This document shows, piece after piece, positions 18,861-62,267 of a DNA stretch of 64,000 nt (the first letter of the stretch is position 1; the number at the start of each line of letters is the position of its first letter). Position numbers and translations under genes: made by a program. The notes below the pieces were generated by a model. It was not told where the DNA came from and made no database searches. It was given only the letters and a program-made list of their open reading frames with translations. The stretch covers positions 186,001-250,000 of the forward strand of contig SNVD02009077.1 of NCBI GenBank assembly GCA_013180625.2, written 5' to 3'. Source of the DNA: Boswellia sacra. Its lineage: Eukaryota > Streptophyta > Magnoliopsida > Sapindales > Burseraceae.

Positions 18861-18901
18861 GCAGCATGTATAGAGACAAGACTGAAAGGAAAAATGCCTT
18901 C

Positions 18902-19378: not shown

Positions 19379-19383
19379 GCGGA

Positions 19384-36120: not shown

Positions 36121-37177
36121 TAAAGTAAAAAATTAACGATCTTGGCTGCCATTCTTTCTAAAACACTCAAGCTTCCTTCTCTCTATGCCGTTGCCATACA
36201 CGACGACTGAATCCACCACGCACTAACCCTCTAACACCTTCATCGACATCTCTAGGATCTACCACAAGCATTTTCTTCTTTGTTTTCCATTGATTTGCAC
36301 TGCTCTCATCTTCTCTCTTTCACATGTGACCAAGGTACGTTGATTGATAATCTTTCACGTATGATCAAACATTTGATTCTTAATGCTCTTTCAATTTATA
36401 ATATAATTATTGAAGTATTTATGGCAACTGTAATGGCACTACAAGAATTTTTTGCATACTTGTCACTTTACAATTTTTTTATTTGGCAGTTTTTAAAAAA
36501 GTGAGAAATTTAACCATGTTTTAAAAGTCAAACCTATTAATTCATCTTATTTGTCACTTTTTGTCTTTATTCATCACATATATATCACATTTGTATAAAA
36601 GTTTGACAAGTATATGAAAATGTAATTTTTTTTCTTTTCCCTCTCAAATTTCCCTATTTCTTTTCATTTTTTCTTTCAAATATGTGAATATAATATTTAA
36701 AATTTTAATAAATTTATTTAAATATAATTAAACAATATAATTTTGTTTTTAATATAAAATTAAAAATAATTTTTAAAAATCTTTAAATTAAAGATACATT
36801 ATTACATGTATGAAAAGAATAAATTTTTAAATATTAAATTTTATAAAAATGAATTTTTAAATGTAGAAATTTTATTAAATAAAAAAATTATTTTTTAATT
36901 TCAAAGTGATGAAAATCACATTATTTAATTGCTTTGATAAAAATTAAGTAATTAACAATATCAAAAAAATTATTTTGTAGTAATATAATATTTTAAATAT
37001 ACAAAAAATTATTATAATTTATTTTAAAAATTAAATTAAAACATTTAATGCTCTAAAAATTATAAAAAATTAGTTTAATGGTGTAAATGAAAGAGTTTGA
37101 AATATAGGGACTGAACTGAAATGGGTACTATTTTGATAAATTTTAATAGAGATGGATTTCCGTGAAATTCACAATCC

Positions 37178-37485
37178 TATATAAAGAAAATGAAAACCCT
37201 AGCCGTCCTAATTCGAAATCCCAAAATCTTACATTTCCTTCTCCACTCCAAAATCTTCGAAGAAGCCATGGAAAGGCTTCTCTACTCATCCTCTCCAACC
37301 CATCTCAACAATACACATCTCAGGTTTTCTCCTCTCCTCTCTCGCCTCCCCCGTTTTGACTCACCAAAAGTCGATTCCGTCTCCTGCAACTCTCCTCTTT
37401 CTCTGGAGATGACGCGCTGAATGAGTCAATACCCAATTCTCCTTCTCTCGAGCAGATTGGCGCAGAAGCTGTTCAGAAGAAGAAG
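37178..37485 (+). pseudogene. Captured promoter and first exon, gene uncertain
   Basis: A TATA box (TATATAAAG, 37178-37186) is followed by an AAACCCTAGCCG stretch, a telo-box-like element common in promoters of plant housekeeping genes. The frame from ATG 37268 (MERLLYSSSPTHLNN) looks like a Ser/Leu/Arg-rich organelle targeting peptide. A second frame ends ALNESIPNSPSLEQIGAEAV and reaches a good donor (AAGAAG/GTAACG, exon end 37485), so one shift separates the two halves. It may be the first exon of the arginyl-tRNA synthetase whose later exons lie downstream, because plant versions are dual-targeted, but I could not confirm homology. Confidence 0.45.
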
Positions 37486-38482
37486 GTAACGTTTTTCATT
37501 CAGATTAATGGAGAGTTCTTGTCTTTTATTTTATTTTTGGGTTGCTTTGATTTGGGGTTTACTGAATTATGTGGATATATGGTGAATCGGGAGTTATAAA
37601 CAAGTAGGTTCTGAGAAATGGGTTGTTTGATTGTTAGGAAAATAGAGAAAAGAGGAAAGAAAGTTACAGCCTTTTGGTTTTTGATTTTATTTTTTAATAT
37701 TTTGTATTACTGGCAGTTTGATACAGTAAAAAAAATGTTAATGAAATGGAAATGTATATAATTGGGCTCTCACTGTTGGCAGAATTAATTAGTGATTAGC
37801 TGGGAGAAATTGTAAATAATAACAATTTTCTGTTATTTCATGGCATCGAGTTCAAAAAATTTTCTATAGCAGAATGGGTTTTTTGGTATGCTTAAGAGTC
37901 TGTTTGATTCTTTCAATTAGATAACTTTATATGGTGTAGAATAAGTGTATTTATTACAATAATTGGACGAATATCTATCCCATTGGTTGGAATCAATTCC
38001 TTGCAGCCACTGCGAAGGTTTACTTGATCCCCATGGAGGTGTAGAGGGGGGCACCTTGCACTGTTCCCGTAGACTAGTTTGTATGAACACCAAGGTTATA
38101 AAAAATGTATATATATCGCCATTATGTATCCTATGCCTTCTTCCACACCACGAGTATCATATTCCTACTTAAAACTGCTGAATTCTTGTAAATAAATAAT
38201 TCACAATTAATTTAATCAGAATTTTAGTTCCCATTATTCATTGCTTGCTGAACTAAAAAAGTCTGCTAGGGGTATAATACTTGCTGAACTAAAAAAGTTG
38301 ATAGAGGCTAACCCCTTTTCCGTAATAAGCTTCAATTTCCTACCTTGAAGAATTCGAGGCTGCGAACACTAATTAATCAGAGGTCTTTGAGAAGTTCTAT
38401 GCTTTTTTGTGTGTTGGACTTTATTCTTTTGGTTATTGATTTTAAGCCAAGATATTCACATTTATTGGCATTTGAACTGCAG

Positions 38483-38865
38483 TTTAAACTGGCAGCATCA
38501 GCTTTGTAAAAATCCAAGGCCAAATCCTGACATAAAGACCTTGTTTGTGGACCACAGTTGTGTACAGCCAAATGGAGCTAGAGCCCCATCCCCTGTTACC
38601 AATCCCTTAATAGGTGCTGTTTCGAAGGCCGTCGGTTTTCCGCCATTGAGTGCTCATGGTGTAAGGGAAAATTTTTTAAAGATTTTATGTTATTAAGCTA
38701 ATTTGAATTTCTAGAACTTGAACTTAAATGTGTGTTTACAGCCATTTCAGCCTACTCCTGCTGCTTTTTCAACATCTCTTACTGGATGGATGGCTAATGC
38801 GTCTCCTGTGCCTCACCCTGCAGTTTCTGCAGGGCCTATAGATTTGACTGCTCCTAATAATGCAG
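38483..38865 (+). pseudogene. TPL-like: TOPLESS co-repressor gene fragment
   Basis: Two exons with a GT-AG intron. Exon 38483-38660 reads SLNWQHQLCKNPRPNPDIKT and on through LFVDHSC, PNGARAPSPVTNPL and SAHG. Exon 38742-38865 reads PFQPTPA, then LTGWMANASPVPHPAVS, ending APNNAG before a GTACC donor. This is the highly conserved linker between the N-terminal TPD/CTLH part and the WD40 repeats of TOPLESS/TOPLESS-related proteins, which are nuclear co-repressors recruited by EAR motifs. Only this linker is present, with no TPD and no WD40. It lies inside the CACTA element between exons of a different gene. The reading frame within both exons is open. Confidence 0.85.
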
Positions 38866-39061
38866 GTACCTATAGAAAAACTTATGTTAATGAGCAGTAT
38901 TTTAAATTCTAAAGCTATTTAGTTTCCTTTTTTTTCTTTTAAATGCCTTTTAAATTGCCTTAATACTAAGAATTACATATATATCATGTAAAAATGTGAT
39001 CTGAAGCCGTGCTAACCTATTTCTGTTTTGTAAACATTAAATCACAAATAAAGGGATAATG

Positions 39062-39773
39062 ACCAGTGCCTAATGAACCAGACGTGGAGCCATCGGTTGC
39101 TGCCTACCTTGAGAAGTTAGCAAAATTTGGTGATTACCAATGGTATATTGTACTACTGTGCTTTTAGAATATGTGGGAGATATATTTAATGAGTTAATTA
39201 GTTTTGTTTAGAAGTGGTATATCTCTGATATTTAGTGTTAAACTGGAGCCATATTCATGCTTTATATGCTTTTGTTATGAATGTTAATTAGGATTATTTC
39301 TCTCGTGCAGTAATAATGCCATGGGGCTTTGGTCTAAAATTAAGGGAAATGGTACTGAATATAAGAATCCCGCATCAGTTGGACAGGTATTCTTATTGAC
39401 ATTCTTTATGATTCTGCATTCTTGGATCTCGAATTTTGCTTTGTGCTCACTTAATACGTCCATTGATTGTTAATGCCCTTTTGTACTTTTGGTTGTGTAG
39501 GCCATCTTGAAAAATCTTCCTCCATCTGAAATGATAGATTCCTGCCCTGTAGCATGTGCTGGATTCATTAATGTTGTGTTATTGAAAAAGTGGATAGCAA
39601 AGGTGTTTGCATGTTCTTGTATTTTTATGCTTGATCTATAGCTTCTTCTTTTTTTTTCTCCCTCAATACGTGGAATATGTTAGAGTTTATTGTACTGATG
39701 TCATTTTGTAAGGCCAGTTGTTTGCTTATTGCATCTGTAGAGCATTCAGAAGATGCTTGTTGATGTTATTGAA
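39062..39773 (+). pseudogene. Arginyl-tRNA synthetase gene fragment
   Basis: Four successive exons of the N-terminal part of plant arginyl-tRNA synthetase keep their splice signals. They are about 39062-39142 (VPNEPDVEPSVAA...KFGDYQ), 39311-39386 (CNNAMGLWSKIKGNGTEYKN), 39501-39602 (ILKNLPPSEMIDSCPVA...KWIAK) and 39741 to about 39773 (SIQKMLVD). The Cys codon spanning the first junction is restored by splicing, which supports the intron call. The enzyme charges tRNA-Arg. The HIGH-like and KMSKS-type catalytic regions are absent, so the fragment is not functional. It lies downstream of the TOPLESS fragment in the same CACTA element. Confidence 0.8.
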
Positions 39774-40124
39774 ACTATTAGTAGTGCTGGTAGTAGACTT
39801 ATGGCTTATTTGAATTATTCTCAACTTAGTGCAAGCTTAATCATGAGCTGCAGCATAATTTAATCCAACTTCTTTAATTTTATTATGGTTCTTTATTTTA
39901 TTGTGTTGGTTTCCTTGAATGATCCAAATTATAATTATTATTTTTAGATTAGGCAGTGAGATTTTTTCTCCCTTCCTAATTGAAAAAGCATATTGTTTCT
40001 TTGTAGTTTACTCTATATATTATGAATTTATGAAAATTTTTAAAATACTTATTATATATATATATATTATGAATTTATTAAATTTTTAAAATATTTATTA
40101 TATATATTAATTTTTTAAAATACT

Positions 40125-40409
40125 TGGCGGTTAAAAACTGACAAGTATTTTTTTTTTAATTTCTAAAACTATTATACTTGGCGGTCAAAAGACCGCCAAG
40201 TATATTTTTTTTTAATTTTTTAATCTATCATACTTGGTGGTCTTTGACCGCCAAGTATGGTTAGATGCATATTTGGTACTTTGACCGACCACCAAATATT
40301 GTCAAATTGACTATATTTGGCGGTGCCATTGGTGGCGTTTTGAAGACCGCCAAATATATACATATTTGACGGTCAAAGACCGCCAAATATGGTCATTTTT
40401 CTTGTAGTG
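40125..40409. repeat. CACTA subterminal repeats
   Basis: At least eight copies of a TTTGGCGGTC / CTTGGCGGTC-type motif occur in both orientations, several forming short hairpins (GGCGGTCAAAAGACCGCC at about 40181). This is the usual arrangement of transposase-binding subterminal repeats in CACTA elements. The left end has only a few degenerate copies. Confidence 0.8.
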
Positions 40410-41405
40410 TGGGTGGATTGTTTTTGTGGAGTAAGGGTGAAACGAATGGCATGTTAGGAGTGTCTTTGTTTACTCTGTGAAATTGAAATGTGATACATTG
40501 ATTTAGAACGGATGATTATGGGTGAAATGGTAGTATAGTCCCTTTGCATGATTTTTTAGTCGGTATGTGAATGAAGGTTATAATTTGTGAAGTTGAGATT
40601 GAATTGAATACACAAAATTCTGCATCAATGAATTTTTGTGTTATAGACTAAGAATGAAAATTGGTTTAAGCATGAATACATGACATGGTGCATAAGATAT
40701 TATTGGTTAGATAATAAGTGGGCTAGGAAAACTAATTGTTGTTCAGGAGGAATTTTGAGTTGCTATTTGATATGGGATAGTTGCATATTACATATTAGGA
40801 ATCATGATAATGTGCTATTAGCCAATCCGGATATTTGAAATTTCATTACTTTTACTGCCCGATTGCTACTTTGGATAAGTTAATTTGCTAATGAAATTTC
40901 GAATATCCACAATGCTCAGGTCCACATTGCTCAGAAAATTGATAGACATCATTCACATACCATGTCTATGTTTTTAGGAAATCTGAAAGCTCACCTTGCT
41001 TGTTTGTTACGTACTTAACAGAAATTGATAAAACATGTGAAGTATCTCTAGGTTATGCTTCCTTTTGAGATCTTTATGTCATTTCATCATTTGGGTGATC
41101 TTGTTGAAATCTTAGAATTGACTTGCTTCGATCATTTGATTTACAGATTAAATTAACACATCAGTTTCACATACTCAATTTGATTTTAAAATTGAGAATT
41201 GCATTTACCAATGACAACAGAGTCTTTCTCTTTACCAGTAACCTGCATTCAATATGGATTGTTGCCATGCATTTACATATGTACATTGTTGACAAAATGC
41301 ATAAATATGGAATTGACATTAGTACTTAATGACCATATAGATCATGTATGACCATTAACAATACTAGATTGTTTGTTTCTATATGCTTTATTTGTGTGTA
41401 GGAAC

Positions 41406-42635
41406 ATGGCACCAAAGAAAAGGAAGACATCCACTGTTGAAGCATCATCCTCTGTTGTCTCTGTGTTTGACCGGCGCACCTTCAAAAGTGTCGAAACTAC
41501 AACCCGCTGTCATAATATTATACTCAATAAAAGTTACCTTAGAGAGTGCGGCATTGACACATTTCATGAGTGTTTATGGTCATTATTAGGTCAAGATACA
41601 TGGCAAACTTTCATAAGCCAACCAGAGCACGCCATTGTACCCGTGTTTCAAGAATTTTATGCGAATGCCAAAGAAAAGACCGATTACAATGTATTTGTCT
41701 GAGGAAAACAAGTTTTCTTTAGTCTCATTGTTATTAATCGATTCTATAGGCTATATGACATTGGAGAATACAAATATTCCTAGAACAAGATCAATCCCAA
41801 TTTTGATGAAATCCTAGCTTACCTCACTCCAGCGGATACCCAGTGGGGGTCTTCTCGAGCTCATCGAGGGGATGCCAATATATTTATGACATCTTTGATG
41901 TGTGTGGAGCTACGGACGTTGAATTCACTTGTTTGTGGAAAAGTGTTGTCAAACACTAATATTGTTGAGGTTTCCAAGGAACGGGCTACACTTCTCTATG
42001 CATTTAAGCGAGGAATGACGATCGATGGGGGGCAGTTGATTGCAGCCAATATCATTCATTGTATCCAGTCTCGTACCAATGGAGGCTTGTCACATCCATC
42101 ATTGATTATAGCTCTCTATCGAGCTGCTAGAGTAATGGTTGATACAGATGAGGAGCGCACACTGCCACTGCCTATTATAGATATGCACTTCCTTCAGACT
42201 CTTAAGAGAGCCCGTGTGAGGCCACCACCTGCCCAGCCGCCACAGCAGCCGAAGCCCCCACCTGCGGCTTGCACCTTGATCGCTACACAATGGATGGATA
42301 GACTCAAGTAAGAGCTTACTGCAATACGCCACGAGGTCACTCATATTAAATAGATGGTAACATACATCATAGAGACTAAGAATGCGTTCAAGTAGTTCTT
42401 CATTAGCTACGGGGTGCCTTCGAACTTATTTCCTCCTCAGCCACTCTTTGTTGAAGATGAGCGACAACTTACTGAGGGGTTTCCTCTGGAGACAACCGCC
42501 GATGAGGAGGAGGATGTTACACAGCAGGGTGATGACTATGTCTTTACTGGCACGTCGGTCGCTTACCTTGGTGCCGATCTTGGAGGTATTTTGGGTGATG
42601 ATTTAAAGGATGATCAGAACTGCACCGATTCTTGA
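41406..42635 (+). pseudogene. Env-position ORF of element A (plant transposon protein)
   Basis: The ORF starts MAPKKRKTSTVEASSS, a basic nuclear-type N-terminus. It then carries EFYANA and NVFVRGKQVFFS-like text around a stop at 41700, a proline-rich stretch (RPPPAQPPQQPKPPP) near 42220 and an acidic C-terminus ending at TGA 42633-42635. This layout fits the putative plant transposon protein family (Pfam Transposase_32), found downstream of pol in Athila-like elements; its function is unknown. Stops at 41700 and about 42309 and at least one frameshift break it. The acceptor GTGTGTAG lies five bases before the ATG and pairs with a good donor at 36335 (CAAG/GTACGT), so it was probably translated from a spliced mRNA. 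Confidence 0.6.
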
Positions 42636-42914: not shown

Positions 42915-44442
42915 TGATGAACACTTAAATATACATGTTTAATAAGAGTTTAGTTCATCATATTGCATTAATAGTGTCATTAAATTCCTCAACTTAAGCA
43001 TATTTGTAGCATTTGCATCTTTGGAATTAATTTCTCTTAATTTTGGTTTTGTTACAGGTTCGGTAAAATGGGCATAACTCTCTATTTATAGATTAGAATG
43101 GTGCAATTCTTAATGTTTTGGAAAGCTGATTTAATTGTCTACAAGATTGCATTTCACAAGCATCATCAAATTCGGGCTCTTAGTGGACCAAAATTGGGCT
43201 TGAAATGAACCCATCTACAGTCTCGGCCTAGTCTGACCAGGCCTCAGTATTTGGACTGTATCTCTCAAAATACTTATCCAAATTGTGCAAATCAATATGT
43301 TCTAGAAAGCTGAGAGAAATATCTACAACTTTCATGAAGACATGTGATTAAAATTCACAACATTTCGATGTCAAAATTGATGGTCAAAGTCGGTGCCTAA
43401 TGATCCCAATTGTCAAAGATATTTACAACTAATATTTGACATTTATGCACTTGTAATTTGACAAGTTTGCCCCTGGATGTATCTATAAATAGAGGTGCCT
43501 TGTGACCCATTATGGCATCTTGGCCTTGGCTGGAACATTTTGGCTTTGGCTAGGATCTTGTATTGTGTTTTGTGTGTTTATGTTATTAATGAATTTCCTT
43601 TTTCTTGCATTTTATTTTCTTTCTATTATAATGTTCTTCTAATTTCTCTTTTGCTAATGTGAAAGGGTGAAACCCTTGATATGAGAATAAGGATTCTCTA
43701 ACCCTTAATATGTGCTAAATAATCTTAATCTTATAATGTTTATTCAATATGATTTATATTTAATTTCTTAATCAATCTTGACACCACTCGTAAAGTGGAG
43801 GTCTTGATCCATTGTTGACAATCCTTGGCACATCAAATGCTTGGATCCTTTCTAGATGATGTATGGTTCTTCCTTACCAACACGAATCTAGTTAGGAACC
43901 TTGATTTGTTGTAGACATATGATGATTGGCACATTGGATGCTTGAACCCATTTACAAGAAGTGGTATAAATATTGGTAATGAAACAAATATAATTCATAT
44001 ACTAAAATGGGTTAATTATCCTTATTTGAAATATCAAGGGCGGATCCCCTAACCTTAGCCTTCATTGTTATTGTTTTAATTCCTCTTGTATTCTAATTAT
44101 TCTATTGTGTATGAACTTTTTATTTTATTTACTATGGTAGGTTCTACCACCTTATGAAATTGTTCTTTAATTTACTATGGTTGGTTATACCACCTATCTC
44201 CATGGATGGTTTTACCTCCTCTTGCTTTTTGTTTTATATTTGAATGGTCGGTAATACCACCTACCATCTTACATACTTATTGATATTCTCTTGTTATTTC
44301 TTTGAACCATCCATATCACATTTGCTTATCTTATAATTTGTAACGCTTAAATTCCCTTCCTTGTGGATCGACCCCGGTCTTACCGGGTTTATTACTTCGA
44401 CACTCCTATACTTGGGAGTCAATTCCTTTTTCGGATGTGTCA
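42915..44442 (+). repeat. LTR1 of Gypsy family B
   Basis: This 1528-bp LTR begins TGATGAACACTTAAAT and ends GGATGTGTCA. TATAAATAG is at 43484-43492. A run of imperfect ATGGTNGGTTNTACCACC repeats lies at about 44140-44270; it is missing from LTR2 and largely retained in LTR3. Confidence 0.9.
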
Positions 44443-44448
44443 AGTTTT

Positions 44449-44466
44449 TGGCGCCGTTGCCGGGGA
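44449..44466 (+). promoter_or_regulatory. Primer binding site of element B1
   Basis: TGGCGCCGTTGCCGGGGA starts seven bases after LTR1. It is the standard Athila/Tat-type primer site, usually attributed to tRNA-Asp. The B2 copy has no counterpart. Confidence 0.85.
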
Positions 44467-44581
44467 AGGTAAAAATTGGCGTGCAAAATTGTAAGTGTTC
44501 TCTTTTCTCATCTTAGATCTAAATTTTTATTTTTGTGTTTTCATCTTTTGCTCTCTTTTCTTCTTCCTTTCTTGCATGAAA

Positions 44582-46315
44582 ATTTGGTCACGAACATCTA
44601 GTGGTAGACTTGTTAGAAAAACATCATCTTCCTTAGAAAACATGGCCGACAATCATGTGGAAATATTCACGGATGAAGGGGACAACCGTTCGCAACAAAA
44701 TGATCAAAACCAACGAAGAACCCTCAGAGACTACATGAATCCGGTAAGGACTATTGCACCATCTTGTGTAGTTTCTCCTCCAGATTCAATCCATTTCAAT
44801 TTCAAACCAAGTTTTGTTCGACTTCTACCCACTTTTCATGGCCTTGACAGAGAGAACCCATATTCGCACTTGAAACTCTTTGAAGAGGTATGTAGCTCCT
44901 ACACTGACCCAAATTGTAGCATAAACACCATTAGATTAAAGCTTTTTCCTTTTTCTTTAAAAGATAAAGCTAGAATATGGCTACAAAATTTGAGGTCGAA
45001 TTCCATCAGTTCATGGGATGAGATGAAACAACAATTTTTGAAAAATTTTTTTCCTACCCCTAGAACAAATTCTCTTAAAAGACAAATTTCTGATTTCTCT
45101 CAAAAACAATGGGAAACCCTTTACCAATGTTGGGATAGGTATAAGGAACTACTTAATACCTGTCCTCACCATGGGTTTGAAACTTGGAGAATAGTTGTAC
45201 ACTTCTATGAAGGGTTAACACCTCAAGATAGGCAACTAGTAGAATTAATGTGTAATGGAGAATTTAAGAGACAGCCCTGAGGAAGCACTTGACTTCCTAG
45301 ATTCCTTGGCAGAAAAGGCACAAAATTGGGACACTGCTGGCACCTAGGAGGTACCAAGCAAGGCCCAAACCTCGACATCCAATAGAGGTATTTACAACCT
45401 TAGGGAAGACCCTGACCTTCAAGCCAAATATGCATCCCTAGCTAGAAAAGTCGAGGCTTTAGAAATGAAAAAGAGTGGTCAATTGAATTCTATTTAAGAA
45501 AATGTCTGTAACATTTGTGATGACAATGACCATTCTACTGATGATTGCCCAACTTTGCCTGCCTTTAGGGAATGTCTCCATGAAGAAGCCAATGCCTTGA
45601 ACACTTTCAAAAGGCCAAATCACAATCCATATTCACAAACCTACAATCCTGGTTGGAGAAATCATCCAAATTTTAGTTGGAAAAATGACAATCATGCACA
45701 ATCTTCACAAGTCCCTTTTCAAACACAACAAAATTTTCAAAATTCTCATGATCATGCATATGCTCCTCCTCCTAGGAATGACCTTGAAGAAACATTGCAT
45801 TCATTCATTATAAAGCAAGAGACTTTCAATAGTCAAACTGCTCAAACATTAGCAAATTTGTCAGAAACTCTTGCAAAATTTGCATCTACATTTAGCATCC
45901 AAGAGAAGGGAAAATTTTCTTCTCAAACATTGCAAAACCCCAAAGATCAATCTAACTCAAATGCAGGGAGTTCAAATAACCATTATTTTGACCAAGCCAA
46001 GTCAGTCATGACCCCTCGCAATGGTAAGGTTGTTGAAAAACATATTCCTAACCATTGTGAGAAAGAAGAAGAATCGATCTCTAAAGGGCAGGAAAAGGTT
46101 GCCAAACCAACACCTAGCGAAGAGGAAACCAAATCCTCATCTGTGCCTCCATTTCCTCAAGCATTAGCTACACAAAAGAAGCCAACTCACAATTCTGAAT
46201 TCTTTGAAATTTTCAAACAGGTAAAGGTCAACATTCCCTTGCTTGATGTGATCAAACAGTACCCTTCTTACCCAAAATTTTTTGAAAGACTTGTTCACTG
46301 TGAAAAGAACTGAAT
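44582..46315 (+). pseudogene. Element B1 gag
   Basis: The gag frame from about 44582 (or Met at 44642, MADNHVEIFTDEG) has the retrotransposon gag domain: [35 protein letters not shown] and QWETLYQCWDRYKELL. A frameshift near 45262 ends it at TGA 45278-45280. The true frame continues with stops at about 45345 and 45495 to a CCHC knuckle CNICDDNDHSTDDC (about 45511-45552) and NPYSQTYNPGWRNHPNFSW, and stays open to 46313. The product would be the capsid/nucleocapsid protein; this copy needs at least three repairs. Confidence 0.85.
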
Positions 46316-49300
46316 GTGAAAAAGAAGGCCTTTCTAGCTGGCAAGTAAGTTCTGATTCTTTAAAATAATAATACAGTGAAGGTAGATCCAGGTTGATCCC
46401 TACAATTTCTGTGTTAGTGGAGACCATAAAAATGGAACAAGCTTTATCTGTGTGTCTTGTGCGAGGTGAAATTTGCTTTCCATACTCGGATTTTTTTCAA
46501 AAACTCAAATCTAGGTGGTTAAGTGTCACCGACTTCTGTAAAACTCTTTTGGGGCTTGCTGATAAGATCAATTAAAGTACAAGGAGGGAGTAGTAGAAGA
46601 TGTATTATTCAGTCGATAATTCATTTACCCAGTGGATTTTATCATCTTGGACACACAACCAGTGGAAGTAAGCAATTCAATTCCTGTTATTTTAGGGCGT
46701 CCATTTCTAGCTACTTCTAATGCTTTGATTAATTGCAGGAATGGAGTCATTAAGCTATCCTTTGGGAACATGACATTAGAACTTAATGTTTTTAATATGT
46801 GCAAACAACCAAATGAAGAAGAAGATGAAATTGACGAAGCCAATGTAATTGAATCTATTGTAGAAGATCACATCCAAAAAGGAAGTTCTTCTGACCCTTT
46901 GGAAACTTATCTAGTGAATCCATTAGAATCAAGTATGGAACTAGAGTCTGATCTTTCTAATATATGTTCTTTATTGGATTGTGCACAGGTGACGGAAAAA
47001 GGCTCAAAATCAAGATTTGAAGAATTGGGGTAAATGAATGAAAGCAAGGAAGAGGAAGCTCCCAAGTTAGAATTGAAGCCCTTACCTGAAGGACTGAAAT
47101 ATGCATATCTTGGGAAGAATCAGACATATCCGGTGGTAATTTCTTCATCTCTCACATGCGAGCAACAAGGTAAGTTGATAGAAGTGCTTAAAAGGCATAA
47201 AAATGCAATCGGGTGGACTTTAAAAGATATAAAAGGCATTAACCCTTTAATTTGCACACATCGAATACATTTAGAGAAAAATGCCAAAACATCCCAACAA
47301 CCTCAAAGAAGATTAAATCCACATATGAAAGAGGTCATTAGGGCTGAAGTTCTCAAACTACTTGATGTGGGAATTATCTATCATATTTCTGATAGTAAGT
47401 GGGTAAGCCCTACACAAGTAGTACCTAAAAAATCTGGCATTACAGTAGTTAAAAATGAAAAAGGGGAATCATTGCCAACTTGTGCCTCATCTAGTTAGAG
47501 GATGTGCATTGATTATAGAAAATTAAATGCTGTCACTAGAAAAGACCATTTTCCCTTACTTTTTCTTGACCAAATTCTTGAAAGAGTAGCAGGAAACCCC
47601 TACTACTGCTTTCTTGATGGATACTCAGCCTACTATCAAATCCCCATTGCACTTGAAGACCAAGAAAAGACCACATTCACGTGCCCCTTTGGCACTTTTG
47701 CATTTAGGAGAATGCCTTTTGGACTTTGTAATGCCCAGCCACTTTTCAAAGATGCATGTTAAGCATTTTCAGTGACATGGTTGAGCATTGTTTAGAAGTT
47801 TTCATGGATGATTTAACTGTCTTTGGAAACTCTTTTGATAATTGTCTTGAAAATTTAGAAAAAGTCCTAAAAAGGTGTGTGGAAAAAGGTCTTATTTTGA
47901 ATTGGGAAAAATACCATTATATGGTCACTTCGGGAATTGTCTTAGGTCATGTGGTGTCTTCTAAGGGAATTGAAGTGGACAAAGCAAAAGTGGAATTAAT
48001 TTCCCATTTGCCTCCACCAAAAACAGTAAAAGAGGTTCGTTCATTCTTAGGGCATGCTGGATTTTATAGGAGGTTCATAAGAAATTTTAGTGCTATATCT
48101 TAACCTCTTTGTAACCTCTTAATAAAAGACACTTCTTTTGAATGGACTCAAGAATGTCAAAATGCCTTTGATAAATTAATTGGACTTTTAACAACTGCTC
48201 CAACTATGCAATCTCCTGATTGGTCCTTGCCTTTTGAATTGATGTGTGATGCAAGTGACTATGCCGTTGGTGCTATCTTTGGATAAAGAAAAGAAGGTAA
48301 GCCTTACGTAATATACTATGCAAGTAGGACTTTAAATGATGCACAAATGAATTACACAACAACTGAAAAAGAACTACTTGCAGTAGTATTTGCATTGGAC
48401 AAATTTCGATCCTATTTAATTGGTTCTCTAACAATTGTTTACACTGACCATGCAGTTGTGAGATAATTAATGTCTAAACAGGATGCAAAACCTAGATTGA
48501 TACGGTGGATCTTATTGCTCCAAGAATTCAACATCACAATAAAGGATAAGAAAGGAGCCGAAAATGTCGTTGCTGATCATCTTTCAAGACTAACGACAGA
48601 GACATTAATTGAAACTTCACCTATCAATGATTCCTTTCCTGATGAATTTTTATTTTCTGTTGCTACTGTACCTTGGTTTGCTAACATTGTAAATTTTCTT
48701 GCGACAGGGAAAATGCCACCTCATTGGAATGCTCAAGACAAAAGAAACTTTTTAACCGAGGTGAAAAATTTTTACTGGGATGACCCATATCTGTTCAAAT
48801 ATTGTCCAGACCAAATAATGAGAAGATGCATACCCGACAATGAGGTAAGTAGTGTCATTAACTTTTGTCATTCTGAAGCATGTGGAGGACATTTTTCATC
48901 TAGAAAAACAGCTGCTAAGATCTTACAATGTGGATTTTATTGCCCACCTTATTTAAAGATGCACATGCATTTTGCAAAACGTGTGAAAATTGTCAAAAAT
49001 TGGGATCTATTTCAAAAAGAAACATGATGCCGTTGAATCCCATTCTTGTCGTTGAAATCTTTGACTGTTGGGTATTGATTTTATGGGACCCTTTCCACCG
49101 TCATTTGGTTTTGTGTACATCCTTGTTGCAGTAGACTATGTTTCAAAATGGGTCGAGGCAATTCCATGTCGAAACAATGATCACAAAACAGTTGTCAAAT
49201 TCTTGAAGGAGAATATCTGGAGTAGATTTGGAATTCCTCGAGCCATTATTAGTGATGGGGGTACACATTTTTGTAACAAACCATTTGAAACTTTAATGAA

Positions 49301-49955
49301 GAAATATGGAATAACCCATAAAATGTCTACACCTTATCACCCACAAACAAGTGGACAAGTTGAATTAGCTAATAGGGAGATAAAACAGATCTTACAAAAA
49401 ACGGTTAACCCAAATCGTAAAGACTGGTCTTTAAGACTTAATGATGCACTTTGGACTTACCGAACTGCTTTCAAAACATCATTGGGAATGTCTCCTTATA
49501 GATTAGTTTATAGAAAACCTTGTCACTTGCCTATGGAAATTGAGCATAAAGCTTATTGGGCCATTAAAACATTTAACACAAACTTGAATGATGCTTGCAA
49601 GTTACGTAAACTCTAACTGAGTGAACTTGAAGAAATCAGGAATGAGGCTTATGAAAATTCTAAAATCTCCAAAGAAAAAATGAAGGTTTTTCATGACAAA
49701 TCCATTGTTAGAAAATCTTTTGAACCTTCACAAAAAGTTCTTTTGTATGATTCAAGATTGCATTTGTTTCCTGGTAAACTTCGGTCTCGTTGGATTGGGC
49801 CTTTCATTGTTAAAAATGTTTTCCTTCATGGAGCAGTTGAAATCGAGAACCCAAAAAATGGTAATATGTTTAAAGTTAATGGACAACGGTTAAAACCATT
49901 CTTTAAAAATTTTGACCAAAATGAAGAGTCCATTGCTTTAGTCGATCCTTTTTAA
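46316..49955 (+). pseudogene. Element B1 pol
   Basis: The protease region is badly damaged: the DLGAS active site expected at about 46440 is scrambled, while VILGRPFLATSNALI (46700) survives. Reverse transcriptase runs from about 47034 (LNPHMKEVIRAEVLKLLDVG; YRKLNAV; FRRMPFGLCNAQ; FMDD near 47800). RNase H has CDASDYAVGA and YYASRTLNDAQMNYTTTEKE. Integrase has an HHCC-type start (H-SEACGGHFS), [18 protein letters not shown] and [18 protein letters not shown]. Lesions seen: TAG 47496, a shift near 47745, TAA 48101, 48284 and 48464, two shifts between 48946 and 49068, and TAA 49614. The final segment 49680-49955 ([20 protein letters not shown]) is the usual integrase C-terminus. Confidence 0.88.
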
Positions 49956-50079: not shown

Positions 50080-50628
50080 ATGGACACCATTCTCTCAAAT
50101 CTACACAAACATTTTCCCTCTCTTCCTCCAAATGATTTGCTTAAAATTTACAAAGCTCGCGCAGAAAGAGTAAGGATGTTGATGCGTAAGGGTATGCCTG
50201 TCGAAGTAAGATGGTTAAATGAAGCCAAGGTTCGATTTTCTTATGAATTTTCAGATAATCTTGTTTCTCACATTCCAGGTATGGGAAAAAGCTCTTATGA
50301 CAAAAAGCGAAGAGCGAAAAGGTTACAAGTTTGTCCCAAATGTGCAAGATGGACTTGTAACCAGCGTTGCCGCTCCTTGGGATATTTGTCTAATAATCGA
50401 GAGGATAAAATACAGTTCATCAAGAATGGACTGAGTAAGGAGTCTTTGGATGATATCGGAGTGACTCTTGAGACGCATTCTTGTGGACTAGTACAGCGTG
50501 AAATTTTTAACTTATGGACACAATTCCGAGATGAGCAGGAACGCTATAGCTTTGTGAATCTGACTCAAAACGACCCTGTTTGCCAGTTTATAAGAAAACT
50601 GGATGGGAAGCATATCCCCAACTCATAG
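50080..50628 (+). CDS. Basic Cys-knuckle protein, viral NABP-like accessory ORF
   Basis: This intact 182-codon frame starts 125 bp after pol. I choose ATG 50080 (MDTILSNLHKHFPSLPP) over the upstream in-frame ATG at 50035 because the B2 copy keeps this ATG at 57843. Residues 21-50 are rich in R/K (KIYKARAERVRMLMRKGMP). Residues 70-85, GKSSYDKKRRAKRLQVC, form a strong basic, nuclear-localisation-like stretch running into C85-x2-C88-x4-C93-x3-C97, a likely zinc knuckle, then EDKIQFIKNG. A basic run abutting a Cys cluster and followed by such a tail resembles the nucleic-acid-binding and silencing-suppressor proteins (NABP families) of plant flexiviruses. That is a pattern-level resemblance, not a search result. 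No standard Gypsy gene looks like this. A role in RNA binding or silencing defence is inference. Confidence 0.6.
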   Translation: MDTILSNLHKHFPSLPPNDLLKIYKARAERVRMLMRKGMPVEVRWLNEAKVRFSYEFSDNLVSHIPGMGKSSYDKKRRAKRLQVCPKCARWTCNQRCRSLGYLSNNREDKIQFIKNGLSKESLDDIGVTLETHSCGLVQREIFNLWTQFRDEQERYSFVNLTQNDPVCQFIRKLDGKHIPNS

Positions 50629-50949: not shown

Positions 50950-51600
50950 ATGGAGGGAACTTCAAAACGTCGAATCCAAAAGATATGTGTATTCTGTGGA
51001 TCTCGACCGGGTAAAAGTGAAGAGTTTGTCAAGGCAGCAAATTATCTTGGTAGACTACTGGCTGAAAGAAAGATTCATGTGGTTTATGGGGGAGGTGGCC
51101 TCGGGTTAATGGGTTATGTGTCAAGAGCTGCACGTGTAGGAGGTAGTCAAGTTTTAGGAATTATTCCTAAAGCTTTGGCTATAGAAAGCATTGTTGGAAA
51201 AACGGTTGGGCATGAGTTACAAGTCTCCTCTATGCATGAACGCATGGCACATATGCTCATCAATTCATATGCCTTTATTGCTTTACCAGGTGGCTTTGGT
51301 ACTCTCGAAGAAATTTTTCAAATTGTCTCTTGGGCCCAACTGAATCTCCATCAAAAACCTATAGGTTTGTTGAATGTTAACAATTTCTTTGATCCTTTAA
51401 TAAGTTTTGTTGATGCAGCTGTGGAACAAAATTTTATCCCTCATTCGACGAGACAGATCCTTGTTTCTGCCACTTCTGCTGGTGAGTTACTTGACAAATT
51501 ACAAGCAGTTGAGTATGAACTTGACCCTGCTAGTACTCAAATTAATTGGTCAGGAGGGCAAAACAAAAAGTGCAAATTGGATCTGAATCTCTGTTTGTAA
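50950..51600 (+). CDS. LOG-like: LOG-type cytokinin phosphoribohydrolase, retrotransposon-borne
   Basis: This intact, intronless 216-codon gene lies 321 bp after the Cys-knuckle ORF. It spans the whole LOG family length (about 210-220 aa). The fold starts KICVFCGSRPGKSEEF. The nucleotide-binding loop VVYGGGGLGLMG is at 44-55 and IPKALA at 72-77. The MHER motif with the family's active-site Arg is at R98, and PGGFGTLEE is at 113-121 with the catalytic Glu. WAQLNLHQKPIGLLNV is at 128-143. LOG enzymes release ribose 5-phosphate from cytokinin nucleotides to give free active cytokinin. Host plant LOG genes have several introns; their absence fits capture of a spliced transcript. The tail adds NKKCK and LDLNLCL (210-216), an EAR-type repression motif that is not part of the LOG fold as I know it. 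The B2 copy is dead. Activity is inferred from intact motifs. Confidence 0.88.
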   Translation: MEGTSKRRIQKICVFCGSRPGKSEEFVKAANYLGRLLAERKIHVVYGGGGLGLMGYVSRAARVGGSQVLGIIPKALAIESIVGKTVGHELQVSSMHERMAHMLINSYAFIALPGGFGTLEEIFQIVSWAQLNLHQKPIGLLNVNNFFDPLISFVDAAVEQNFIPHSTRQILVSATSAGELLDKLQAVEYELDPASTQINWSGGQNKKCKLDLNLCL

Positions 51601-52902
51601 TTTTTTCTTTTCTTGTCTTTTATTTTTAGCATTTTATAAGTCTTTCAGGTCATCTTTCTTGAATAACAGAAGCTTCTGGTAATGTCTCCTATACATTATC
51701 TCTCTACATTTAAACATTGAGGACAATGTTTCATTTGGTTGGGGGGGAAGGATAGTAGAAATAAGTATGTTTTGAATTTTCTTTTTCTTGAAAAAAAAAA
51801 GCGAGTTAGTAATTAGATTCAGAGTGCGGCGTAAGGAGTTCAAATCCTCTTGAGACGCATTCTGGGTCAGGAATGGCAGAGTAAGGAGAACCAGTTTGAA
51901 CTCTTGAAACCCATTCTAACCAATTTGTCATTTTATTTTGATTTTGTGAACTCATTTTAGCTAACTTGATATTATTTAGTCTTGATTTTTGAATTTTATA
52001 ACAAGGAGGTCTTATTCATTTCACTTTGAATTATTCAAATCTATGAACTCTCATAACATTATCATTTAATAAACTGTGTGCTTACTTACTCGTTAAGCAA
52101 GTATTAATGAACCTTTCTTCACACACACACATACCTTGATGCATTATTGTGGGTGGCAAAATGAAATGTTGTAATATTTGAGTTCTTTTATTTTGTTTAG
52201 GATAACAACAAAAGGAAGGGGAAAGTAAAAAAAAAAAAAAGAAAAGTGAAAAAAAAGGTAAAAAAAAGGAGCAATTATGGATAAGTTTGGTCTTGTAGCC
52301 TCCTTAATTTGAGCAATTAAGCCCGAGGGGTGCCTCAACACCTAATATCCTAAGATCAACTGGTTTGGGAGCTATTGGCCCAAAGCTCGCTACATGGATT
52401 AAGGAGAAAGCTTAATGGGATTGAACATTGCACTATCCACAAGTTTCTAAGCAAAAATAAAGCATCGGCAACCCGAGTTGTTAAGCTCGTAGGGGTGTCT
52501 TAACACCTAATGCCCTAAGGCCAACTGGTCTGGGAGTCATTAGCCTAAGGCTCGTTACATGGGTTAAAGATGCATTCTGTCAAAAAAAAAAACATATATA
52601 TATAAAATAAATGAATGACCCCTACCTACAGTTGTTAGCCTTAACAAATATTAGAACCGATATGGCTTCTTTCTAATAAGCCCCATAGTCATGTGTCGAC
52701 TGAGCACAAAAAGAAGGTTTATTGATATCTTGACTGAAGGGAACATGAGTCATTAAAAAAAAAAATCGGTTGAGAGTTTGTTTATTTGGATAAAATCAAG
52801 GAGAGTGCAATAATGATCACCTTGGACGTAAAATTCTATAAATCACTTCTAAACAATAACGCTTTAATTGCTAGGGACTAGCAATAAGCTAGTTGGGGGG
52901 TG
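51601..52902 (+). other. 3' untranslated region of element B1
   Basis: No coding frame is supported. CATTGAGGACAATGTTTC and GGTTGGGGGGG (51714-51750) mark the end of the coding part. Two copies of a ~93-bp unit (52309-52402 and 52478-52569, GGGGTG then CACCTAATGCCCTAAGGCC) stand about 169 bp apart. A-rich simple tracts occur at 52225-52270. GTTGGGGGGTG at 52892-52902 is the polypurine tract abutting LTR2. Confidence 0.75.
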
Positions 52903-54284
52903 TGATGAACACTTAAATATGTTGCTTAATGAGAGCTTAATTCATCATATTGCATTAATAGTGTCATTAAATTCCTCAACTTAAGCATATTTGTAGTCTT
53001 TACATCATTTGAATTAACGTTCTCTTAATTTTGATTTTGGTGTAGGTTTGGTAAAATGAGCATAACTTTCTATTTATAAATCAGAATGGTACAAATCTTA
53101 ATGTTTTGAAAAGCTGATTCAATTATCTACAAGATTCCATTTCACAAGTATCATCAAATTCGGGCTCTTAGTGGACCAAAATTGGGCTTGAAATGAACAT
53201 ATCTACAGTCTCGGCCCAGCCTGACCATGCCTCAGTATTTTAACCATATCTCTCAGAATACGTATCCAAATCATATGAATCAAGATGTTCTAGAAGGTTG
53301 AGAGAAATATCTATGACTTTCATGAAGACATGGGATTAAAATTCTCAAAAATTCAATGTCAAAATTGGTGGTCAAAGTCGGTTCACCTAATTACCCCAAT
53401 TGTCAAAGTTGGTGCATCTAATATTTGACAATTATTCCTTTGTAATTTGACAAGTTTGCCCCTAAATATATCTATAAATAGAGGTGCCTTGTGACCCATT
53501 AGGGCATCTTGGCCTTAGCTGGGATCTTGTATTGTGTATCTCTTGTTATTGTGTTTTTCTCTCTAGTGTGTTATTAATGAATTTATTTTTTCTTGCAATT
53601 TGTTTTCTTTCTCTTATAATGTTCTTCTAATTTCTCTCTTGCTAAGGTGAAAGGGTGAAACCCTTGATATGAGAATAAGGATTTTCTAACCCTTTGATTT
53701 GTGCTTAATAATCATAATCTTTGTTATTTATTTTATATGATTTATATTTATTTTCCTAATCAATCTTGACATCACTTGTAAAGTGGAGGTCTTGATCCAT
53801 TGTAGACAATCCTTGGCACATCAAATACTTGGATCCTTTATAAATGTCGCATGGTTCTTCCTTACCGACACAAGTCTAGTTAGGAACCTTGATTTGTTGT
53901 AGACATATGGTGATTGGCACATTGGATGCTTGAACCCATTTATAAGAAGTGGTATAAATATTGGTAACGAAACAAATATAATTCATATAACTAAAATGGG
54001 TTGTTTATCCTTATTCGAATTATCAAGGCGGATCCCCTAACCTTAGCTCTCATTATTATTGTGTTAATTTCTCTTGTGTTTTAGTTATTCTCATTTATTA
54101 ACTTGTTCTTTACTTATACATGTTGATATTATCTTGTCACCTCTTCGAATCATCCATATCACATTTGCTTAGCTTATAATTTGTAGCGCTAAAACCTCCT
54201 TCCTCGTGGATCGACCCCGGTCTTATCGGGTTTATTACTTCGACACTCCTATACTTGGGAGGCAATCTTTTTTTGGATGTGTCA
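52903..54284 (+). repeat. LTR2 of Gypsy family B (shared)
   Basis: This 1382-bp LTR begins TGATGAACACTTAAAT and ends GGATGTGTCA, with TATAAATAG at 53473-53481. It serves as the 3' LTR of B1 and stands where the 5' LTR of B2 would be. It lacks the TACCACC-repeat segment of LTR1. The next base starts truncated pol sequence with no primer site. Confidence 0.9.
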
Positions 54285-57717: not shown

Positions 57718-57842
57718 TTGATTTTTTCCTGATCAAGTGGCAAATACGGTACTCAATGACTTTTAAAGTCGGTTTTTCAGTTCCCTAAAAGCTATTGCTC
57801 ACCTTGCACTCATTTTCTTTTCTTCTTTCTCATTTTCTTCAC

Positions 57843-58387
57843 ATGGATACCATTCTTTCAAATCTGCACATGTTTTCCGTCTCTTCCTCAAAATGATTTG
57901 CTTAAAATTTACAAAGCTCACGCAGAAAGACTAAGGATGTTGATGTGCAAGGGTATTCCTGCTGATTTAAGATGGTTAATTGAAGCCAAGGTTCGATTTT
58001 CTCGTAAATTTTCAGATAATCTAGTTTCTCACATGCCAAGTTTGGAAAAAAGCTCTTATGCCAAAAAGCGAAGAGCAAAAAGGTTACAAGTTTGTTGCAA
58101 ATGTGCAAGATGGATTGGTAACTAGTGTTGCCGCTCCTTGGGATATTTGTCTAACAATCGAGAGGATAAGCTACAATTCATCAAGAATGGACTGAGTAGG
58201 GAGTTTTTTGATAATAGCCAATTGACTCTTGAGACACATTCTTGCGGAATTTTGCAGCGTGAAATTTTGAAATTATAGACACAATTTCAAGAAGAGTAGA
58301 GCGTTATAGTCTCGGGATTCTGACTCAAAATGACCATGTTTGCCAGTTTATAAGAAAACTGATGGGAAGCATATCCCCAACTCATAG
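57843..58387 (+). pseudogene. Cys-knuckle ORF, B2 copy
   Basis: Homologue of 50080-50628. ATG and MDTILSNLH are kept, then a 2-nt deletion (about 57868) shifts the frame. The frame resumes in 57898-58125 (KSSYAKKRRAKRLQVCCKCA). The knuckle reads CCKCARWIGN*: the second half is lost to a stop at 58123-58125, and further shifts follow. The basic stretch and first Cys pair are still clear. Only this segment shows that the ORF belonged to the family ancestor and is not a private gain of B1. Confidence 0.8.
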
Positions 58388-58720: not shown

Positions 58721-59372
58721 ATGAAGGGAACCTCAAAATGTCGTATCCAAAAGATATGTGTATTATGTGGATCTCGACCTTAAAAAAGTGATGAATTTGT
58801 AGCAGTAGTAAATTATCTTGGTAGGCTATTAGCTAAAAGAAAGATTCATGTGGTTTATGGGGGAGGTAGCCTCGAGTTAATGAGGTGTGTGTCAATAACT
58901 GCACTCGTAGGAGTCAGTCAAGTTTTAGGTGTTTTTCCTAAAGCTTTGGCTGTAGAAAGCATCATTGAAAAAATGGTTGGGAAGGAGTTACATGTCTCCT
59001 CTATGCATAAATGCATGGCATATATGCTTATCAATTCTTTGATGCCTTTATTGCTTTACCAGGTGGCTTTGGTACTCTTGAAGGAATTTTTCAAATTGCC
59101 TCTTGGGCCTAACTGAATCTCCATAAAAAACCCATAGATTTGTTGGATGTTAAAAACTTTTTTGATCCTTTGATACGTTTTGTTGATGCAGCTACAGAAC
59201 AGAATTTTATCCCTCATTCGGTGCGACAGATCTTGTTTCTGCCACTACTGCTAGTGAATTATTTGACAAATTACAAGCAGTCGAGTATGAACTTGACCCA
59301 GCTATAACTCAAATTAATTTGTCAGAGGGACAAAACAAAAAGTCCAAATTGGATCTAAATCTCCGTTTGTAA
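58721..59372 (+). pseudogene. LOG-like pseudogene: LOG-type gene, B2 copy
   Basis: Homologue of 50950-51600 at the same place. It has a stop soon after the start (CCTTAAAAAAG, about 58779) and several shifts (near 59040 and 59225). Key residues are lost: the nucleotide loop reads GGGSLELMR, and the active-site Arg of MHER is Cys (MHKC). ALPGGFGTLE is split by a shift. The final LDLNLRL tail is still readable before TAA 59370-59372, so the EAR-like end was present in the common ancestor. Confidence 0.88.
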
Positions 59373-60719: not shown

Positions 60720-62267
60720 TGATGAACACTTAAATGTGTATGATTAATAAGAGCTTAATCCATTTTTTACACTAATAGTGTCATTAAATCCCTCAATTTA
60801 AGCATATTTGTAGTCTTTGTATCTTTTGAATTAACTTCATCTTAATTTTGATTTTTGTTACAAGTTCGATAAAATGGGTATAACTTTCTATTTATAGATC
60901 AGAATGGTGCAAATCTTGGTTTGTTGGAAAGCTGATTAAATTATCTACAAGATCGTATTTCACAAGTATCATGAAATTCGAGCTCTTAATGAACTAAAAA
61001 ATGGGCTTGAAATAAACCGATCTGCAGTTTTAGGCCAGCCTGACCATGCCTCTGTATTTTGACATATCTCTCGATATACGTATCTAAAGCATATGAATCA
61101 GGATGTTCTAGAATGCTAAGAGAAATATCTACAACTTTCATGGAGACATGTGATCAAAAGTCTAAATAATTGGATGTCGAAATCGGTGATCAAAGTCAAT
61201 GCACATGATGATCCAAATTGTCAACAAGATATTTTACAATTATTCCTTTATGATTTGACAAGTTTGGCCCTGAATATATCTATAAATAGAGGTGCATTGT
61301 GACCCATTAGGGCATCTTGGCTTTGGTTGGGATCTCTTATTATTGTGTTTTCTCTTTTGTGTTTTGTTCTCTTAATAAATCATTTTCTTTTTGCAATTTT
61401 TTTTTTCTTTCATTCATAATGTCTTGCTAAATTCTCTTTTGCTAAGGTAAAAGAGTGAAACCCTTGATATGAGAATAAGGATTTTCTAACCCTTTAATAT
61501 GTGCTTAATAATCATAATCTTTTGTTATTTATTTTATATGATTTATATTTATTTCCCTAATCAATCTTGGCACCAGTCGTAAAGTGGAAGTCTTGATCCA
61601 TTGTAGACAATCCTTGGTACATCAAATGCTTGGATCATTTCTAGATGTCGTATGGTTCTTCCTTGCCGACACAAGTCTGGTTAAGAACCTTGATTTGTTG
61701 TAGACATATGGTGATTGGCACATTGGATGCTTGAACCCATTTACAACAAGTGGTGTAAATATTGGTAATTAAACAAATGTAATTCATATAACTAAAATGG
61801 GCTTAAATGACATACCTTCTGATTGGAACCTCCTTGATATGTGGATCCCAATTAAGTTATAATTGGATTTTTTATCCTTATTTGATATATCAACGGCGGA
61901 TCCCATAACCTTAGCCTTCATTGTCATTGTGGTAATTTATCTTACTTTTGTACTTTAATTATTCTTATTTATTGCTTATGAAATTGTTCTTTCATTTGCT
62001 ATGGTAGATTTTACCTCCTATTTCTATGGATGTTCTTACTACTTTTTATTTTTGTTTTACATTTGAATGGTCGGTAGTACCCCCTACCATCTTTACTTTT
62101 ATTTGTTAATATCTTTTTGTTATTCATTTAAATTATTCATATCATATTTGCTTACCTTTTAGTTTGTAGCGCTAAATCCCCTTTCTCATGGATCGACTCC
62201 GGTCTTGTCAGGTTTATTACTTCGACACTCCTATACTTGGGAGATAATCCTATTTTTGGATGTGTCA
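60720..62267 (+). repeat. LTR3 of Gypsy family B
   Basis: This 1548-bp LTR begins TGATGAACACTTAAAT and ends GGATGTGTCA, with TATAAATAG at 61281-61289. It is more diverged than LTR1 and LTR2 by eye, and it carries an extra segment near 61800-61870. The following bases (CAAAG) do not match the ATAGT before LTR1. Confidence 0.9.

What the first reader, a model, noticed from the sequence alone, without database searches (positions are those of the whole stretch)
50950..51600. Cytokinin-activating LOG enzyme carried by a Gypsy retrotransposon
An intact, intronless LOG-type gene with loop GGGGLGLMG, R98 in MHER and PGGFGTLEE sits between integrase and the 3' LTR. A second copy occupies the same place in B2, so the gene belongs to the element family. 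LOG enzymes make free cytokinin, which drives cell division and meristem activity. A retroelement that raises cytokinin in its host cell could increase its chance of entering the germ line. I know of no established plant retrotransposon with this cargo, but I could not search.
Basis: partly seen in the sequence, partly recalled or inferred. Interest (0 to 1): 0.93.

Follow-up and report, generated by a model that had tools for sequence, protein, structure and literature searches.

The report
Retrotransposon family carrying cytokinin-activating LOG gene
A large family of plant retrotransposons carries, beside its own genes, an intact-looking enzyme gene of the kind that switches on the growth hormone cytokinin, found next to a gene resembling a plant-virus zinc-finger protein; such enzyme cargo was already known from a few plants, but the pairing, the enzyme's odd tail and its long conservation look new.

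Summary
In detail: window 50950-51600 is an intact, intronless 216-aa LOG-type ORF between integrase and the 3' LTR of a Ty3/gypsy (probably Athila-like) element. The second window copy is in the same place but is a pseudogene. LOG is true family cargo: in the host genome 150 copies were scored (the cap), 122 without internal stops. Four of six copies checked have LTR pairs with 5-bp target-site duplications. Of 20 elements chosen by non-coding DNA, 18 carry LOG, 6 of them lesion-free.

The claim that no such element is established is wrong: LOG (YgdH) domains in Gypsy elements of Citrus and Populus are in print (PMC9289625).

Not seen in my searches: (1) all 38 fetched LOG loci have, upstream, whole or partial sequence related to carlavirus nucleic-acid-binding proteins; (2) these LOGs and their closest database relatives form one clade apart from host LOGs, most with a basic + LxLxL (EAR-like) tail; (3) both genes show purifying selection (dN/dS about 0.2 between subfamilies); (4) a pol-truncated subfamily keeps both. 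Cytokinin release for the element's benefit is plausible but untested.

The parts
42915..44442 (+). 5' LTR of element 1 (TGATGAACAC...GTGTCA)
   Evidence: self-comparison; ends, lengths and K2P distances
44449..44466 (+). primer-binding-site-like TGGCGCCGTTGCCGGGGA just after the LTR
   Evidence: sequence; a match to tRNA-Asp is recalled, not tested
44495..45280 (+). gag
   Evidence: PF03732 3.2e-22
47034..48103 (+). reverse transcriptase region, broken into several frames
   Evidence: PF00078 in two pieces; frames
48467..49955 (+). RNase H / integrase region, with two one-base deletions and a stop relative to L001
   Evidence: PF00665 2.9e-19; comparison
50080..50628 (+). NABP-like ORF, 182 aa: basic KKRRAK stretch plus C-x2-C-x4-C-x3-C finger
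   Evidence: Carla_C4 25.3 bits against cut-off 20.9; 58 of 62 aligned relatives match Viral_NABP and 58 of 62 Carla_C4 at E <= 0.01; dN/dS 0.21/0.91 against L001
50893..50900 (+). CATAAATA, TATA-like box 57 bp upstream of the LOG ATG; also in element 2 (59 bp)
   Evidence: function inferred only
50950..51600 (+). LOG-type ORF, 216 aa
   Evidence: model pLDDT 85.6, best PDB match At2g37210 with TM 0.95 normalised to the target
51565..51597 (+). C-terminal tail KKCKLDLNLCL (basic + LxLxL, EAR-like)
   Evidence: pLDDT mostly under 50 there
51739..51747 (+). first TTGGGGGGG motif; its neighbourhood matches the LOG-less relative L001
52893..52900 (+). polypurine tract TTGGGGGG before the 3' LTR
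   Evidence: same context in the 4 genomic elements with paired LTRs
52903..54284 (+). LTR shared by elements 1 and 2
57841..58386 (+). NABP remnant of element 2 (stops, frameshifts)
58721..59369 (+). LOG pseudogene of element 2
60720..62267 (+). 3' LTR of element 2

Best explanation
This is a Ty3/gypsy (probably Athila-like) retrotransposon family whose 3' region, the usual place of env-like genes, carries a two-gene accessory module: an NABP/cysteine-rich-protein-like zinc-finger gene and an intronless LOG gene, most simply captured once, long ago. Shown: the gene lies in mobile elements with LTRs and target-site duplications; all 38 LOG loci tested for it have NABP sequence upstream; active-site residues and fold are kept; both genes carry the mark of purifying selection. 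Inferred: the protein is an active cytokinin nucleotide phosphoribohydrolase made where the element is transcribed; locally freed cytokinin, with the zinc-finger partner acting as transcription factor or silencing suppressor as its viral relatives do, pushes the cell towards division or a less silenced, meristem-like state and so favours inheritance of new copies. The basic + LxLxL tail probably sends the enzyme to the nucleus and/or to TOPLESS-type corepressors.
For: Cargo status: 150 scored genomic copies, 122 without stops; of six copies other than the window's examined for LTRs, four have LTR pairs 95.2-97.8% identical with 5-bp duplications TCCCC, ATAAC, TTGAT, GACAT by my reading of the printed flanks; 18 of 20 elements picked by non-coding DNA carry LOG. 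Module: 38 of 38 LOG loci (window included) have whole or partial NABP upstream in the same orientation; database gene models fuse INT+NABP (P0181, Rhamnella), NABP+LOG (P0201 Rhamnella; P0235 Orobanche) and LOG+gag (P0001, Xanthoceras). One origin: one clade, 99/99. Function kept: in 114 aligned sequences R98 in 108, G114 in 112, E121 in 111; model matches plant LOG structures. Selection: median dN/dS A vs B 0.17 for LOG, 0.21 for NABP; NABP vs L001 0.21/0.91, Fisher p 1e-12. Tail: LxLxL at the end in 100 of the 120 best hits of the window LOG against 0 of 120 host hits, and in 26 of 30 subfamily B loci, which were found with a tail-less host LOG. Viral relatives of NABP: silencing suppressor, or transcription factor causing hyperplasia (passages of PMC12172455 and PMC9650830).
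Against: No expression, enzyme or phenotype data. Only 6 of 18 LOG copies not chosen by LOG are lesion-free, and pooled pN/pS there is 0.55, so most such copies decay as dead transposons. NABP is lesion-free in only 10 of the 38 loci. A relative with NABP but no LOG exists (L001), so LOG is dispensable in at least one lineage; 2 of the 20 unbiased elements also gave no LOG match in the stretch read. The H of MHER is kept in only 63 of 114 (S in Populus, Q in Paulownia examples); substrate choice is unknown. The NABP link to viral proteins is local and of modest score: the window protein is below the PF05515 cut-off and the structure search was not significant. Tail function rests on a short motif. 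dS between subfamilies (1.34, 1.16) is near saturation, and those copies were picked by LOG score.
Confidence: 0.5

Rival explanations
1. Neutral passenger: LOG was transduced by chance and rides along; intact copies only reflect recent amplification.
For: 12 of 18 unbiased LOG copies have a lesion and pooled pN/pS among the 18 is 0.55; L001 shows the element family can do without LOG.
Against: A vs B LOG dN/dS 0.17 at dS 1.34; substitutions shared by three or more copies are more constrained than singletons (0.40 vs 0.66); catalytic residues are nearly all kept among relatives only 59-71% identical, from Reevesia, Diplodiscus, Populus and Paulownia among others; pol-truncated subfamily B still has both genes.
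Confidence: 0.12
2. Repurposed LOG: the fold is kept, but the selected role is the tailed nuclear protein (corepressor recruitment or a partner of NABP), with cytokinin release minor or absent.
For: A basic + LxLxL tail is conserved to the last residue after a variable linker and absent from 120 of 120 database host LOGs; it is still readable in 17 of the 18 unbiased LOG copies, broken ones included (my reading of the printed tails).
Against: Active-site residues would not need to be kept, yet R98, G114, T118 and E121 are nearly invariant.
Confidence: 0.23
3. The enzyme acts on other nucleoside monophosphates (nucleotide pools or element RNA metabolism) rather than on cytokinin.
For: PDB titles include bacterial LOGs bound to AMP; H96 of MHER varies in the clade.
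Against: Fold and motifs match plant LOGs best.
Confidence: 0.12
4. Single chance insertion of a host LOG cDNA duplicated once by the tandem element.
For: Two tandem copies share an LTR in the window.
Against: 150 copies scored genome-wide, different target-site duplications, related fused gene models in other plants.
Confidence: 0.01

Closest known systems
Gypsy elements with YgdH/LOG-like extra ORFs (Steinbauerova 2011; Alvarado-Marchena 2022, PMC9289625)
   Same: LOG domain in Gypsy consensuses of Citrus sinensis, C. clementina and, with its filter off, P. trichocarpa (PMC9289625 section 12). That the 2011 elements were Athila-like and LOGL4-like is recalled from its abstract; the paper is not held.
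   Different: The NABP partner, the tail, selection on LOG and a pol-truncated subfamily are not mentioned in what I saw of PMC9289625 (abstract, section 12, discussion, term searches).
Orchid Gypsy elements with AlkB/2-ODD RNA demethylase (PMC9289625)
   Same: Gypsy element with a retained enzyme ORF; enzyme shown active in vitro in that paper (abstract, discussion).
   Different: Different enzyme, 25-kb elements, found in Phalaenopsis.
Carlavirus/betaflexivirus cysteine-rich proteins (NABP; CVB p12)
   Same: Basic stretch next to a zinc finger; Pfam PF01623/PF05515 matched.
   Different: The element protein is 182 aa and similar only locally; no silencing or transcription test.
Host plant LOG genes (LOG1/3/4-, LOG5-like and LOG8-type; type names partly recalled)
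   Same: Fold, PGGxGTxxE, R98.
   Different: Host genes in the same genome are intron-split with other C-termini; separate clade.
Agrobacterium T-DNA ipt (recalled)
   Same: Cytokinin-raising gene on DNA that benefits from host cell division.
   Different: ipt makes cytokinin nucleotides, LOG activates them; no tumour effect is known here.

Membership tests
LONELY GUY cytokinin phosphoribohydrolase | PF03641 domain and LOG fold | tested here: met
LONELY GUY cytokinin phosphoribohydrolase | PGGxGTxxE motif and conserved Arg | tested here: met
   window has both; R98 in 108 and E121 in 111 of 114 aligned
LONELY GUY cytokinin phosphoribohydrolase | hydrolysis of cytokinin riboside monophosphates | not testable with these tools
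   needs an enzyme assay
Ty3/gypsy LTR retrotransposon | LTRs, target-site duplication, polypurine tract, gag, RT, then integrase | tested here: met
   in the window; duplications in 4 of 6 genomic copies examined. The window's own array shows no matching duplication
Athila lineage of Ty3/gypsy | placement by RT/INT tree, or Athila ORF-1 (PF03078) | tested here: inconclusive
   no reference set for a lineage tree; no PF03078 hit in the proteins scanned; INT 56% identical to another window element at 34393-34815; lineage call rests on recall of Athila gag and layout
Carlavirus-type NABP/CRP | PF01623 or PF05515 above gathering score | tested here: met
   window passes PF01623 (25.3 vs 20.9), not PF05515 (20.3 vs 23); 5 of 6 relatives scanned one by one pass at least one, P0153 passes neither
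Carlavirus-type NABP/CRP | structural match to viral NABP | tested here: inconclusive
   weak model (pLDDT 66); no match at E <= 0.001; six of the 26 listed are betaflexivirus NABP-type or 15-kDa proteins
EAR-motif proteins | LxLxL motif that binds TOPLESS | not testable with these tools
   motif present; binding untested; EAR definition recalled

The most novel reading that the evidence does not exclude
An ancient lineage of plant retrotransposons carries a ready-made growth module: a virus-type zinc-finger protein plus a nucleus- or corepressor-directed, EAR-tailed cytokinin-activating enzyme. The module is kept by selection even in a subfamily that lost its integrase and most of its reverse transcriptase, and it reprograms the host cell to favour transmission, a transposon counterpart of T-DNA hormone genes.
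Probability: 0.3. Interest if true: 0.92.

Novelty: new variant of a known kind. Interest (0 to 1): 0.74.

Why it matters
Transposons are usually thought to survive by hiding or by copying fast. A family that has kept a plant growth-hormone enzyme, with a virus-type regulator, over long times would show transposons acting on host physiology, and this can be tested with ordinary enzyme, localisation and silencing assays. It also warns annotators: some plant gene models named LOG (for example Populus 'LOGL10', P0043 and P0075) look like element genes rather than host genes.

Tried and rejected
Looked for element relatives in IMG/VR with LOG, NABP, the NABP alignment and L001 integrase: none confirmed. 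NABP structure search in BFVD: not significant. PDB search with the NABP profile: one hit at E 0.58. Within-subfamily-B LOG dN/dS (0.11) is not used as evidence because those copies were picked by protein score; one search was made to correct for that. The equal longest-contig length (8,723) of P0004 and P0124 is a hint only; the LOG+ label of P0124 rests on it. The bacterial promoter scan (none found) has no meaning for a plant. The host species was not identified. A genome-wide NABP count was asked for five times and never answered.

Rows dropped before counts: one search used 113 of the 120 LOG hits and 99 of the 120 host hits (length limits; P0001 and P0002 left out); a thinned set of 81 rows; 70 rows with 11 of 15 own host loci; 62 rows, a thinned set. 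One search sampled 150 pairs where there were more and dropped pairs with under 120 codons. For one search I took 20 of the 40 elements by rank, leaving out the window, two already fetched and one with a split match. For LTRs, of the 7 A loci other than the window's, L008 was left out (contig end).

Full report
What is there. Window 50950-51600 encodes a 216-aa LOG-type protein in one open frame, with the Pfam Lysine_decarbox domain and closest solved relatives At2g37210 and At5g11950. An AlphaFold model (pLDDT 85.6) matches these at TM 0.93-0.95 normalised to the target. Upstream lie gag, RT and integrase; 1.3 kb downstream the 3' LTR starts after a TTGGGGGG tract. The window holds two elements in tandem sharing the middle LTR: K2P LTR1-LTR2 0.130, LTR1-LTR3 0.191, LTR2-LTR3 0.166, internal 0.123. 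Element 2 lacks gag by BLAST, and its LOG and NABP are broken. Element 1's pol is broken too, so neither window copy looks autonomous.

It is family cargo. The host genome (638.6 Mb, 7,431 contigs) could be searched. The window LOG scored 150 copies, the cap, out of 14,385 first-look candidates: itself and 149 at 88-94% identity, 28 of the 150 with a stop (my count). A grapevine host LOG as query scored 150 places at 52-55% identity to that query, 6 with a stop (my count); the 30 of these that were fetched are 64-69% identical to the window LOG and are here called subfamily B. The other 120 were not checked. Of six subfamily A copies examined for LTRs, four have both, 95.2-97.8% identical, each with a perfect 5-bp duplication by my reading of the flanks; in two no LTR pair was found. 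One of three B copies examined shows a pair (97.7%), with duplication AAGAT by my reading. To avoid choosing copies by LOG itself, 40 elements were found by 3' non-coding DNA and short stretches of 20 of them were read: 18 have LOG, 2 gave no match; 6 of 18 have neither a stop nor a frameshift (one of these has a 12-base in-frame gap); pooled pN/pS is 0.55 (0.48 among the 6), with 0.40 for changes shared by three or more copies and 0.66 for singletons. NABP was not tested in these 20, whose stretches are too short.

The partner gene. Between integrase and LOG, 50080-50628 encodes 182 aa with a basic KKRRAK stretch and a C-x2-C-x4-C-x3-C finger, conserved at 90% or more in 62 aligned relatives. 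It passes the Carla_C4 cut-off; 58 of 62 relatives match Viral_NABP and 58 of 62 Carla_C4 at E <= 0.01. 268 of 285 candidates match it at E <= 0.001; named ones among the 120 listed come from Xanthoceras, Acer, Populus, Rhamnella and Orobanche. All 38 own-genome LOG loci (window included) have it, whole or in part, upstream in the same orientation; integrase was seen in 6 of 8 A loci and the LTR start downstream in 7 of 8. Only 10 of the 38 NABP copies are free of stops and frameshifts. Gene models from other plants join the same neighbours: INT+NABP (P0181), NABP+LOG (P0201, P0235), LOG+gag (P0001). L001, a plant-like contig filed in a bacterial genome bin, has integrase and NABP but no LOG, with matching sequence on both sides of the gap. 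The NABP tree does not decide between loss and later gain of LOG.

One origin, and a tail. The 120 best database hits of the window LOG are treated as element LOGs; only a few are tied to an element directly (above). In trees of 215, 81 and 70 rows they form one group against host LOGs: SH-aLRT 99, 96/99 without the tail, and 99/99 with 11 of the 15 host LOG loci of the same genome (the other 4 had too few exon residues in the stretch). The host set holds LOG1/3/4- and LOG8-type proteins; LOG5-like ones (type recalled) come from the own genome. The host loci are split into exons. The last 16 residues hold LxLxL in 100 of 120 hits of the window LOG and 0 of 120 host hits; of the 20 without it several are truncated and some differ by one residue. 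Hits were ranked by likeness to a tailed query, which favours the tail; but subfamily B, found with a tail-less host LOG, has it in 26 of 30 loci. Of the 15 own host loci 12 gave a readable end, none with a terminal LxLxL; three LOG5-like copies read LSLSLS inside a longer, perhaps shifted end. Such tails resemble EAR motifs (recalled); the 8 titles and abstracts listed by one search showed no LOG with such a tail.

Selection. Subfamily A against B, medians of sampled pairs: LOG dN 0.23, dS 1.34, ratio 0.17 (150 pairs); NABP 0.22, 1.16, ratio 0.21 (144 pairs). Copies were picked by LOG score, so the LOG figure may lean low, while NABP was not selected on; dS is near saturation. Window NABP against L001: 0.21/0.91. 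LOG of elements 1 and 2: 0.107/0.244 (Fisher p 0.0008). Catalytic residues across 114 sequences. The three B copies read keep a stretch similar to the window's second gag-region ORF (25-43% identity), a protease-like DLGASINVMP motif (recalled; whole frame in one copy, broken in two) and the start of RT, with no match to the rest of RT or to integrase; none of the 30 B loci shows the integrase C-terminus within 1.5 kb of LOG. So the module seems to outlive the element's own enzymes; that B spreads with proteins from other elements is inference.

How it may work. Viral cysteine-rich proteins can suppress silencing, and CVB p12 acts as a transcription factor causing hyperplasia (passages in PMC12172455; PMC9650830). 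LOG frees active cytokinin (established knowledge). Together they would favour cell division and weaker silencing where the element is expressed. This step is inference. A TATA-like box lies 57 bp before the LOG start in element 1 and 59 bp in element 2, which may allow separate expression.

What is known. PMC9289625 (abstract, section 12 and discussion read, term searches) reports the YgdH/LOG domain in Gypsy consensuses of two Citrus species and, with its filter off, Populus trichocarpa, in line with Steinbauerova 2011, which is not held; I recall that abstract as naming two Athila-like elements similar to LOGL4. Searches for a carlavirus-type protein in LTR elements, for YgdH with retrotransposon, for LOG with LTR elements and for lysine decarboxylase with Athila (15 of 92 papers listed) showed no report of the NABP-LOG pair in their listings; the library is open-access only. 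Term searches in PMC7264820 and PMC6317226 found no LOG.

Noticed in passing
window 14165-19382: An apparently intact Ty1/copia element: 1,351-aa open polyprotein at 14805-18860 and LTR pieces 97% identical.
   Followed up: no
window about 29900-42311: Parts of another Gypsy element (integrase-like sequence at 34393-34928, 56% identical over its first piece) and, at 41784-42311, a Transposase_32 (putative plant transposon protein) ORF that may belong to it.
   Followed up: partly
L001: Plant-like retroelement DNA (integrase plus NABP) sits in a Candidatus Nomurabacteria genome bin: probable contamination.
   Followed up: partly
L067, L069, L071: Subfamily B copies lack most of RT and integrase yet keep a protease-like stretch, NABP and LOG: a pol-truncated subfamily.
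   Followed up: partly
P0043, P0075: Populus proteins annotated 'LOGL10' fall in the element LOG clade and carry its tail, so they are probably transposon genes annotated as host LOGs.
   Followed up: partly
window 51739-51747 and 52893-52900: Two TTGGGGGG tracts in element 1; the first, with CATTGAGGACAATG upstream, is shared with L001 and could be an internal polypurine tract.
   Followed up: no
L042, L047, L053: Three LOG5-like host copies share the same odd last exon end, perhaps a small host pseudogene family.
   Followed up: no
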